DNA of 64,000 bases from IMG/VR virus record IMGVR_UViG_3300042691_027063, positions 1 through 64,000 of that record; one strand, written 5' to 3'. The notes below the pieces were generated by a model that saw only the letters and a list, made by a program, of their open reading frames with translations, was not told the origin of the DNA and did no database searches. How positions within the stretch are numbered: position 1 is the first letter of the stretch; the number at the start of each line of letters is the position of its first letter. This DNA comes from a virus. This document shows positions 30,241 through 63,063 of this stretch, piece after piece. The position numbers and the translations under genes are program-made.

Positions 30241-30438
30241 TTATTCATAAATCCCAATATTGTTTAAACTTCCATCTTCATTGAAGTAAAATTCAGCAAC
30301 AAATCCGATATATCCACTGACTTTCCCATTATTATCACTTATTGTAATAATTTTTCTATCACCTTCTTCGGTGATTTTAGGTATATATCCTATTGAAACA
30401 AGCATTTCTGTTAAATTATCAAGATGTGTTTTATTCAT
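30241..30438 (-). CDS. Hypothetical small protein
   Basis: 65 aa (MNKTHLDNLTEMLVSIGYIP ...), SD AGGAAG 8 nt upstream. The 'L-x-x-M-L-x-x-x-G-x-I-P' pattern faintly echoes the GMLPP family. Mixed alpha-beta C-terminus (GYIGFVAEFYFNEDGSLNNI). Lies directly behind the large structured leader 30450-30798. Confidence 0.5.
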   Translation of the reverse strand: MNKTHLDNLTEMLVSIGYIPKITEEGDRKIITISDNNGKVSGYIGFVAEFYFNEDGSLNNIGIYE

Positions 30439-30449
30439 ATTTTTTCTTC

Positions 30450-30798
30450 CTAAGTAAAAAGCGAGCCGCTACCTCACAACTTCTACAGCTAACCCCCTAC
30501 GTCGTCATGCAACTTCAAGGTCTATAAGGTATGTGACACACTTTGTAAGTTTAAGGTTATTCGCTGCGGTTACAAACTAACAAACTCCCGCCCCGCTATC
30601 CTACCTTGAGTCGGCGTAGGACACCCAACAGCAATAGCATATAGCTACCACCAAGTAAGAAGTCTCTCCTTCCTGTCACCAACTTGAGCTGATCAGTCTC
30701 TAAGGCTATTGGTCGCCCCATCCCTACTCGATCTTCACTTGCTAAACGTAAAGCCGAAGCCATACTAACTACACAAGGAGTGGACCCTCGGGCTAGTC
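30450..30798 (-). ncRNA. Structured 350-nt leader containing repeat copy A
   Basis: No ORF on either strand. Read on the - strand it holds several clear hairpins: C(UUCG)G-capped stem near 30745, TCCTAC/GTAGGA (30601-30625), TAGC/GCTA near 30640. Then the shared element GTGTCACATACC (30527-30538) ... AGTTGTGAGGT (30471-30481) plus an AGCG-GCT-CGCT hairpin running into TTTTT. Local GC is higher than in nearby genes. It begins at the stop of one gene and ends at the ribosome site of the next. Likely a structured RNA or cis-regulator; class not recognised. Confidence 0.5.
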
Positions 30799-30999
30799 TT
30801 ATTTTGATTTCTTCTCTTTACTCCAGCTAAGGTTATCCTTAGCTTTTCCACATTCCCAACAAAACTCACCTTTCTTTTGCGGAGGCAACATGCCAAGCTT
30901 TTCAAAAACTTCAAGCATTCTCTCAACTTGCTCCACGTTAACGCAAACTGTGTTTAAGTCGTGGTTTAAAGCTTTTTTAATCATAGTGCTACGTTTCAT
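30799..30999 (-). CDS. Small protein, MKRS/GMLPP family, zinc-like tail
   Basis: 66 aa. 'MKRSTMIKKALNHDLNTVCV' then 'MLEVFEKLGMLPPQKKGEFC' and 'WECGK'. The 'E-x-x-G-M-L-P-P' block is shared with 35991 and 36193. The C-x2-C could bind metal. Unknown function. Confidence 0.6.
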   Translation of the reverse strand: MKRSTMIKKALNHDLNTVCVNVEQVERMLEVFEKLGMLPPQKKGEFCWECGKAKDNLSWSKEKKSK

Positions 31000-31904: not shown

Positions 31905-32119
31905 TTTTTAAGAACCTTTAAAAACTCTTTAGCTTGCTGTTTAACCGTTCCCTCAACTAATTTAGGAGGATTGTTTTGTGTAAAAAATTCAAGAAACGCA
32001 ATCGTCTCATCAAGGCTAGTGTCACATTCTTGAATTAGAATGGAAACTTCTTTATGATCCATAAGTTCTGGATTAAAAAGACCTCCAGCTTGTAAATAAT
32101 TTTTTATCTTACTCTTCAT
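31901..32119 (-). CDS. Hypothetical helical protein
   Basis: 72 aa (MKSKIKNYLQAGGLFNPELM ...), all-helical, 'KEVSILIQECDTSLDETIAF'. Preceded by AATAGGAGTGAGAA (good SD). First gene after the structured intergenic RNA 32140-32262. Confidence 0.5.
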   Translation of the reverse strand: MKSKIKNYLQAGGLFNPELMDHKEVSILIQECDTSLDETIAFLEFFTQNNPPKLVEGTVKQQAKEFLKVLKK

Positions 32120-32139
32120 TTCTCACTCCTATTAAAAAG

Positions 32140-32262
32140 GATTTAAAGGCTGGTCTATGCTCGCTCTCAACCATTTACCCAAGCCTCTGTTAGCCGCTTG
32201 GCACCTACCGTTTATCTAGAATTAGCTCGCAACCAAAAGGCTGCAAGCCAAACGGCTCCTAG
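32140..32262 (-). ncRNA. Structured intergenic RNA with long-range helix
   Basis: Between the polymerase stop and the 32119 gene, no ORF. On the - strand AGCCGTTTGGC pairs with GCCAAGCGGCT (11 bp, one G-U) enclosing a GCAGCC-TTTT-GGTTGC hairpin; a second domain is closed by GGCT/AGCC with TGGT/ACCA inside. Too much pairing for a simple spacer. Could be a leader, processing site or stable ncRNA; no known class recognised. Confidence 0.45.
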
Positions 32263-32264
32263 AA

Positions 32265-35363: not shown

Positions 35364-35510
35364 TTATTTATCTTTATATTTAGGTTTTTTGCTGCCGTGC
35401 TTTTTATATTTCTTATTACATCCCTTATGTGGAGGACATATTGCGCAATGAATTCCGCTTTTTAGCTTATGTTTGATTTTTAGGACTCGGCTATTTGTTT
35501 CTTCTTTCAT
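35364..35510 (-). CDS. 48-aa basic Cys/His protein
   Basis: ATG 35510 (MKEETNSRVLKIKHKLKSGI), then 'HCAICPPHKGCNKKYKKHGS'. The C-x2-C-x2-H-x2-C arrangement suggests a small zinc site. No clear SD; instead repeat element B directly abuts the start codon. Confidence 0.5.
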   Translation of the reverse strand: MKEETNSRVLKIKHKLKSGIHCAICPPHKGCNKKYKKHGSKKPKYKDK

Positions 35511-35552
35511 AGAAAATGACTAGCAGCCACCTCACAACTGGGTATGTGACAC
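35511..35552 (-). repeat. Repeat RNA element, copy B (minimal)
   Basis: - strand GTGTCACATACC (35540-35551), one base, AGTTGTGAGGT (35528-35538), then TGGCT-GCT-AGTCA hairpin and TTTTC, directly before ATG 35510. TCACA can pair with TGTGA. Shortest of three copies. Confidence 0.6.
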
Positions 35553-35562
35553 CTCGGGGGGA

Positions 35563-35754
35563 TTAGAAAACGCGGAGACTGACTCCGTAGCGAGAAGCTA
35601 CATTCTTAACTGTTTTGACAGGACGATGAATAATTGCAGCAATACTTTTTGCTGTTAGCGTTCCAGCATTAAATAGAATAAAATTTACAGTTCCTGGTGT
35701 TAGTTTTTTACCAAGTTTGGTTGCTTTACCATTTACATTAGAAAAACGACGCAT
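35563..35754 (-). CDS. Small HTH DNA-binding protein
   Basis: 63 aa from ATG 35754 (AAAGGAG 5 nt upstream). 'LTAKSIAAIIHRPVKTVKNV' followed by 'ASRYGVSLRVF' is a helix-turn-helix as in homeodomain-like/SANT phage regulators. Basic N-terminus. Possible transcription factor for the surrounding leftward genes. Confidence 0.65.
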   Translation of the reverse strand: MRRFSNVNGKATKLGKKLTPGTVNFILFNAGTLTAKSIAAIIHRPVKTVKNVASRYGVSLRVF

Positions 35755-35787
35755 AGATACTCCTTTGTTTGGTTTACTAATCATATA

Positions 35788-59245: not shown

Positions 59246-59254
59246 AATCCTCCT

Positions 59255-59343
59255 AAATAGTGACGAGCCGTCACCTCACAACTACTTTCCTGTCATCCAA
59301 CAACAGAGGTCAGTAACCTTACGAGTTAGGTATGTGACACCTA
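59255..59343 (-). repeat. Repeat RNA element, copy C
   Basis: - strand GTGTCACATACC (59327-59338), 45-nt insert with a CTGT/ACAG hairpin, AGTTGTGAGGT (59270-59280), then a perfect GTGACG-GCT-CGTCAC hairpin just before the AGGAGG of the 59245 gene. Fills the 108-nt gap between two genes. Confidence 0.6.
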
Positions 59344-61443: not shown

Positions 61444-61568
61444 TTAATACCTTTTGCTAAAATAGTACCAACTTCTGATCTACCTTTATTATAATTTGTA
61501 ACATTAAACATTGTAGCTAATAGAAAAAACATAGACACTGGAACAAGCCAGAAAAATAGAGCTTTCAT
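61440..61568 (-). CDS. 42-aa membrane protein
   Basis: ATG 61568, ATGA-coupled to the lipoprotein. 'MKALFFWLVPVSMFFLLATM' then 'NYNKGRSEVGTILAKGIK'. Its AAGGAG SD lies in a TTGTCT/AGACAA hairpin, and a 10-bp CTCCTGAGCT/AGCTTGGGAG hairpin precedes it. Confidence 0.5.
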   Translation of the reverse strand: MKALFFWLVPVSMFFLLATMFNVTNYNKGRSEVGTILAKGIK

Positions 61569-61725
61569 TTTGTCTCCTTAAAAGACAAGCTCCCAAGCTA
61601 TTAAGCTCAGGAGCCTAGAGGTAGGGTATAAACAATTGATTTCATTTAGGTCGGCTTGACATAGCCATGACATCAATCGTTTGACAATATAAATTTTGAA
61701 GGTTTGCCTTTATTTACCTACAATT

Positions 61726-62724: not shown

Positions 62725-63063
62725 CCGAATTCAATTGCACCAAAAAAATAAAGCTCACTCAAAAAAACTGCAAAATTTCCACTTGTTTCAATAACTTACG
62801 AGGCATCTCTAAAGATAAAAAATACTGCGTATATTCTATGGGTCTATGTGAATTCAATAACTTAAGAAAGCCCACTATATCTAACCATATATATAAGGAT
62901 AGACCTATGTAAATTCAATAGCTTAAGCATGGATCTATATAATATCAACTAGATAGCATCTGGATGTATGTAAATTCAATAGGTTAGGTTAAGTGTCTAG
63001 GATGATGTATGTGAATTCAATAGGTTAGTGTGAGAGAGGTATAGGATGTATGTAAAATCAACT
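62725..63063. repeat. Iteron array 1 (TATGTrAATTCAATA family)
   Basis: Seven imperfect copies, best seen at 62845-62859, 62906-62920, 62967-62981 and 63008-63022, with weaker ones around 62788, 62945 and 63058; an extra half site lies at 62725. TCAA-to-TCAA spacings are 66, 62, 29, 31, 41, 41 bp. On the - strand each reads as TTGAAT..., and two copies have a TATA-like box 17-18 nt on, so they could be tandem early promoters rather than, or as well as, protein-binding iterons. Confidence 0.6.

What the first reader, a model, noticed from the sequence alone, without database searches (positions are those of the whole stretch)
30450..30798. 350-nt structured intergenic RNA
In a genome where most genes overlap, this is a 350-nt gap with many hairpins (UUCG-capped stem, TCCTAC/GTAGGA, and others), higher GC than its surroundings, and repeat element A at its 3' end. 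It looks selected as RNA.
Basis: partly seen in the sequence, partly recalled or inferred. Interest (0 to 1): 0.6.

Follow-up and report, generated by a model that had tools for sequence, protein, structure and literature searches.

The report
Modular structured phage RNA, new family
The 350-base gap in this virus of bacteria encodes a real folded RNA that makes no protein, is built from swappable pieces also found in uncultured related viruses, and matches no catalogued RNA family; its job is not known.

Summary
The observation largely holds and the RNA reading is essentially right, but the RNA is on the minus strand and the proposed folding test is not the informative one. The gap (30439-30798) is among the most GC-rich stretches of its gene block (48% against 35%), yet it folds no better than shuffles (z -0.55 minus, +1.31 plus). 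Comparative evidence decides instead. The gap is conserved end to end in IMG/VR contig L010 and module by module in nine others, with compensatory base changes: in module M1 all nine pairs are kept in six sequences, five changed on both sides; the 3' hairpin has about 15 different stems around a near-constant GCU loop in 23 copies. The 3' module (M3) also occurs alone at 35511-35555 and 59255-59343 and in about 20 other contigs. One relative carries a tRNA inside the RNA. There is no Rfam match and none in cultured phages. Best reading: an autonomous phage noncoding RNA, like GOLLD/ROOL in habit but not a member, whose M3 module probably forms or stabilises RNA 3' ends. Existence is strongly supported; function is inferred.

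The parts
30449..30798 (-). whole structured noncoding RNA (350 nt), 5' end near 30794 by comparison with relatives
   Evidence: conserved end to end in L010 (two blocks, 79% and 83% identity) and in parts in L039, L043, G011, L012; 55-aa ORF inside is broken in relatives
30718..30794 (-). module M0, 5' domain (AGCCCGAGGGUCC...GAGUAGGGAUGG)
   Evidence: 89% identical over 82 columns in L010; a different but alignable 5' domain in L039, L043 and G011
30647..30717 (-). module M1: helix ACCRA/UYGGU enclosing an inner hairpin, followed by hairpin GAAG-gagaga-CUUC
   Evidence: 9 of 9 pairs kept in 6 sequences, 5 with changes on both sides, 0 of 500 shuffles as good on pairing; model R2 found a further copy in G011, E=1.7e-8
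30622..30646 (-). variable linker; an insert of about 110 nt sits here in L010 and a complete tRNA in L043
   Evidence: sequence; UCCUAUG/CAUAGGA at the same place in L039
30543..30598 (-). module M2 (UAGCGGGGCGGGAGUUUGUUAGUUUGUAACCGCAGCGAAUAACCUUAAACUUACAAAG), proposed pseudoknot: GCGG/CCGC plus AGUUU/AAACU
   Evidence: model R3 match 30530-30613, E=3.8e-21; found in 8 other records. First helix 100% paired, one two-sided change; second helix not supported statistically
30453..30542 (-). module M3, long-RNA copy: hairpin A, spacer, box AGUUGUGAG, hairpin B, U-rich tract
   Evidence: model R1 match E=1.9e-12
30526..30539 (-). M3 hairpin A (GUGUCACAUACC), loop CAC; UCACA could also pair with UGUGA of the box
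   Evidence: exact match 30528-30537; two-sided changes at its fifth pair in L012, L026, L039
30472..30481 (-). M3 box AGUUGUGAGG
   Evidence: AGUUGUGAG invariant across aligned copies
30455..30470 (-). M3 hairpin B (AGCG-GCU-CGCU) and U tract, terminator-like, directly before the ribosome-binding site of gene 30241-30438
   Evidence: terminator scan hit 30461-30477 minus; about 15 different stems around GCU in 23 copies; U-rich tract after the stem in 14 of 23 copies
35511..35555 (-). second, solo copy of M3 (1-nt spacer), between the D5-like regulator gene 35563-35784 and gene 35364-35510
   Evidence: E=2.9e-6; same position after the same gene in L011, L013, L014, L016, L027, L037
59255..59343 (-). 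third, solo copy of M3, before a small gene starting near 59246
   Evidence: E=1.5e-11

Best explanation
The gap encodes, on the minus strand, a structured phage noncoding RNA of about 350 nt built from modules (M0, M1, a linker that tolerates large insertions including a tRNA, M2, M3). SHOWN: it is conserved as RNA, with compensatory changes in M1 and in the M3 hairpin; it is not a conserved coding sequence; its modules are reshuffled between related phages; and M3 also stands alone, 1-3 copies per phage. INFERRED: in relatives it is transcribed from its own promoter, because a TATAAT-type -10 box lies just upstream of the RNA. INFERRED: M3 is a 3'-end module. Hairpin A and the AGUUGUGAG box form a pseudoknot stacked on a short GC hairpin followed by a U-rich tract, so RNA polymerase stops, or RNA is processed and protected there, with some read-through into the next gene, whose ribosome-binding site starts immediately after. 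The body (M0-M1-M2) then acts in trans as a stable folded RNA, in the manner proposed for GOLLD and ROOL. What the body binds is not known.
For: Conservation of the whole gap. Covariation: M1; M3 hairpin B. Independent finds: R2 and R3 found M1 and M2 next to each other, on the same strand, in G011, which was not used in either model. Solo M3 copies. -10 boxes TGATATAAT (L010, L043) and TATAAT (L039, G011) upstream of the RNA 5' end; TATAAT shortly upstream of solo M3 in L027 and L031. U-rich tract after hairpin B: at least 5 T in 7 in 14 of 23 copies, T fraction 0.74 over the first six bases; all five long-RNA members that end in M3 have such a tract. tRNA inside the RNA in L043.
Against: No expression data. 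Folding energy is not unusual. In the window itself the -10 box is degenerate (TCAAAAT where L010 has TGATATAAT), so here the RNA may depend on read-through from upstream. Hairpin B has only 3-6 pairs and 9 of 23 copies lack a strong U tract, so it is not a standard terminator everywhere. The M2 pseudoknot is not supported by the pair counts (236 of 500 shuffles as good). The hairpin A-box pairing is invariant in M3 copies, so covariation cannot test it.
Confidence: 0.6

Rival explanations
1. M3 is a cis-acting 5'-leader element that controls translation of the gene after it (pseudoknot plus hairpin next to the ribosome-binding site), and the 350-nt version is an elaborate leader of gene 30241-30438.
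For: M3 ends 6-25 nt before a start codon in most copies. In about five copies (window 35.5 kb, L011, L027a, L031, L033) there is no other ribosome-binding site, and GAGG of the box, with hairpin B looped out, lies at normal spacing from the AUG (read from sequences).
Against: The downstream genes are unrelated between phages, and in L037 and L043 a tRNA-like gene follows instead. The solo copy keeps its upstream neighbour (D5-like gene) better than its downstream one. GAGG is not kept in all copies (GAGT, GAGA).
Confidence: 0.25
2. A DNA-level signal (phage promoter with extruded hairpins, as for N4 virion RNA polymerase, or a recombination or replication site), not an RNA.
For: Hairpins with three-base loops and variable stems, several copies per genome, upstream of genes.
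Against: The window copies all have the orientation of transcription; the spacer between the boxes varies from 1 to 58 nt; no giant virion RNA polymerase gene is seen in the 95.6-kb record; M1 has compensatory changes in a region that is not next to a gene start.
Confidence: 0.06
3. A decayed gene or a chance GC-rich spacer without function.
For: Folding energy no better than shuffles.
Against: Conservation across contigs with compensatory changes.
Confidence: 0.02

Closest known systems
GOLLD RNA
   Same: Large structured RNA of phages and prophages; part conserved, part variable; tRNAs can lie in its linker (PMC12286853), as in L043 here.
   Different: Many members exceed 800 nt (PMC12286853); here about 350-460 nt. 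No match to the Rfam model. Modules are reshuffled and one (M3) occurs alone.
ROOL RNA
   Same: Large structured phage RNA of unknown function, often near tRNA islands (PMC12286853).
   Different: No Rfam match; no shared sequence or architecture seen.
tmRNA (pseudoknot domain)
   Same: A chain of proposed pseudoknots; short word resemblance of M2 to a pseudoknot of E. coli tmRNA (recalled from memory, not tested by alignment).
   Different: No tRNA-like end in the window RNA; no Rfam tmRNA match and no tmRNA called by ARAGORN.
Intrinsic terminator / attenuator
   Same: GC hairpin then U tract at the 3' end of the RNA.
   Different: Very short stem with a fixed GCU loop, preceded by an invariant box and a second hairpin; not all copies have the U tract.

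Membership tests
GOLLD (Rfam) | match to the covariance model | tested here: not met
   Searches (window, gathering score; E up to 1-10): no match
GOLLD (Rfam) | length commonly above 800 nt | tested here: not met
   gap is 350 nt; L010 version about 460 nt
GOLLD (Rfam) | phage-encoded, tRNAs possible in the linker | tested here: met
   tRNA-Val between M1 and M2 in L043; a habit, not a family-specific feature
GOLLD (Rfam) | assembles into a 14-mer cage | not testable with these tools
   needs cryo-EM
ROOL (Rfam) | match to the covariance model | tested here: not met
tmRNA | tRNA-like domain and tag frame; Rfam or ARAGORN match | tested here: not met
intrinsic terminator (for M3) | GC-rich hairpin followed by a U tract | tested here: inconclusive
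   one search hit at 30461-30477; 14 of 23 copies with at least 5 T in 7, stems only 3-6 pairs
intrinsic terminator (for M3) | RNA polymerase releases the RNA there | not testable with these tools
   needs in vitro transcription or 3'-end sequencing
protein-coding gene | open frame kept in relatives | tested here: not met

The most novel reading that the evidence does not exclude
A new family of modular, tRNA-accepting phage RNAs in which reusable pseudoknot modules are swapped between phages; the 3' module works as a portable RNA-end element, while the body is a trans-acting RNA machine or particle comparable in rank to GOLLD and ROOL.
Probability: 0.35. Interest if true: 0.8.

Novelty: new variant of a known kind. 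Interest (0 to 1): 0.62.

Why it matters
Few large structured phage RNAs are known, and the functions of the best studied, GOLLD and ROOL, are still open. A further family that is small (350 nt), modular and present as natural deletion and shuffling variants (M3 alone, M2 plus M3, M1 without M2, tRNA inside) offers natural dissection experiments. The solo M3 element is short enough for direct bench tests and may be a portable RNA-end or expression-control part.

Tried and rejected
Rfam families: no match at gathering score or at E up to 10. Folding z-score: uninformative. Cultured phages by blastn with window, M3 and L010 queries: only chance-level hits. Genome collection scan for M3: one hit, inside apparent coding sequence of Lysinibacillus and without hairpin B, taken as chance. 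A wider M1 pattern brought only one new locus, L077, taken as chance. N4-type promoter hairpin: considered because of the three-base loops; rejected (variable spacer, no giant RNA polymerase). Type III toxin-antitoxin RNA: considered because of the pseudoknot-hairpin-gene order; rejected because the downstream genes are short and unrelated. tRNA-like scan of the window: none. M2 pseudoknot: proposed but not supported by counts; kept only as a suggestion. MAFFT misaligns the inner M1 hairpin between groups, so it was left out of the counts.

Full report
What is there. The window is 64 kb of a 95,647-base virus record from IMG/VR, a tailed phage by its terminase and portal, with a family B DNA polymerase only remotely related to cultured phages (best 28% identity, Salinibacter phages). 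From about 24.4 to 62 kb the genes are on the minus strand. Between the minus-strand genes 30799-30999 and 30241-30438 lies the gap of the finding. Its GC content, 0.481, is reached by only 0.05% of 349-nt windows in the block. No Rfam family and no tRNA is found in the window.

Folding energy does not decide. The minus strand folds at -107.7 kcal/mol, z = -0.55, and the plus strand at z = +1.31 against dinucleotide shuffles.

A repeated element led to the relatives. A direct repeat at 30449-30481 recurs at 35507-35539 and 59251-59283. In all three places, on the minus strand, it is preceded by GTGTCACATACC at a variable distance (the long-RNA copy reads GTGTGTCACATACC). Scans of viral contigs with these two boxes brought in some 20 further phage contigs. 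The resulting element, M3, reads: hairpin A (GGUGU-CAC-AUACC), a spacer of 1 to 58 nt, the box AGUUGUGAG, hairpin B (stem of 3-6 pairs, loop GCU or GCUA), then usually a U-rich tract and soon after a ribosome-binding site and start codon.

M3 is an RNA structure. In the 23 copies where it can be read, hairpin B has about 15 different stem sequences (for example GGCG/CGCU, UGGUC/GACCA, AGUGC/GCACU, GUGACG/CGUCAC, AGUU/AACU) around a nearly constant loop. In the 13 copies of alignment A2, four of its five pairs change on both sides, and no shuffle in 500 reached the observed pairing, number of two-sided cells or covariation score. Hairpin A is nearly invariant but has two-sided changes at its fifth pair. 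The loop of hairpin A can pair with the box (UCACA/UGUGA); this is invariant and therefore untested. Covariance model R1 finds M3 in 21 of 30 viral records at E up to 0.03, one to three times each; the window record has three copies (30453-30542, 59255-59343, 35511-35555).

The whole gap is conserved. In L010 both halves of the gap are present (79% and 83% identity) with an insertion of about 110 nt between them. L039, L043 and G011 carry M1 and M2 with a different 5' domain; L012 carries M2 and M3; L044 and L045 carry M1 with another 3' part; L040-L042 carry M2 with another 3' part; L039 has M2-M3 twice in a row, the second M2 in the place of the first hairpin B; in G011 an M3-like core lies between M1 and M2. 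So the RNA is modular and the modules recombine. The long RNA of G011 was found by models R2 and R3 independently and side by side, a real test of both models.

M1 covaries strongly: nine pairs, all kept in six sequences, five with changes on both sides. M2 is too uniform for a test: its first helix is 100% paired with one two-sided change, and the proposed pseudoknot helix is not supported. The 55-aa frame across the gap is broken by stops and indels in L010 and L043, which excludes a conserved protein.

Promoter and end. In L010 and L043 a TGATATAAT box, and in L039 and G011 a TATAAT box, lies just upstream of the RNA's 5' end; in L027 and L031 one lies shortly upstream of a solo M3. In the window the corresponding sequence is TCAAAAT, so a promoter of its own is doubtful there. 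After hairpin B, T makes up 74% of the first six bases, and 14 of 23 copies have at least five T in seven; the window's copy was flagged as terminator-like. This is the basis for reading M3 as an RNA-end element. The solo copy after the D5-like regulator gene keeps that upstream gene in L011, L013, L014, L016, L027 and L037 while the downstream gene differs or is a tRNA-like gene, which also fits an element belonging to the 3' side of the upstream transcript.

tRNA connection. In L043 a tRNA-Val (43.8 bits) lies between M1 and M2, that is, inside the RNA. GOLLD RNAs are described as sometimes carrying tRNAs in their linker, and GOLLD and ROOL as lying near tRNA islands (PMC12286853). This is a likeness in habit. 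Membership in GOLLD or ROOL was tested with the Rfam models and not met.

Verdict. The finding is real and the interpretation as a selected RNA is right, on the minus strand. It is a new family of modular structured phage RNA. The existence of the RNA structure is close to certain; the role of M3 as a 3'-end module is the best current reading; what the body of the RNA does is open.

Noticed in passing
window 32119-32264, minus strand: A second GC-rich gap (0.46), directly downstream of the DNA polymerase gene, is conserved in L012, L039 and L043 (invariant GATAAACGGTAGGTGC and near-invariant CAGCCTTTAAATCCTTTTTAATAGGA) and has no Rfam match above chance: probably another structured RNA of the same phages.
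   Followed up: partly
L043:11876-12026 (+): A 151-nt tRNA-like gene with perfect acceptor and T arms but a very long insert in place of the anticodon region follows M3; ARAGORN does not call it, and Rfam's tRNA model gives only 15.8 bits there.
   Followed up: partly
L037 (downstream of M3) and L041 (downstream of M2): Further tRNA-like sequences with acceptor, D and T arms and about 70-100 nt in place of the anticodon arm, ending in CCA.
   Followed up: no
window 35563-35784, minus strand: A small gene matching PHROG 323 (D5-like transcriptional regulator, E=2.6e-6) is the usual upstream neighbour of the solo M3 element.
   Followed up: partly
window 61444-61725: Largest stretch of the block without a minus-strand ORF, not GC-rich; among the fetched loci found only in L017, identical.
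   Followed up: no
window 62845-63044: Short repeats TATGTGAATTCAATAACTTA at spacings of 61, 61 and 41.
   Followed up: no
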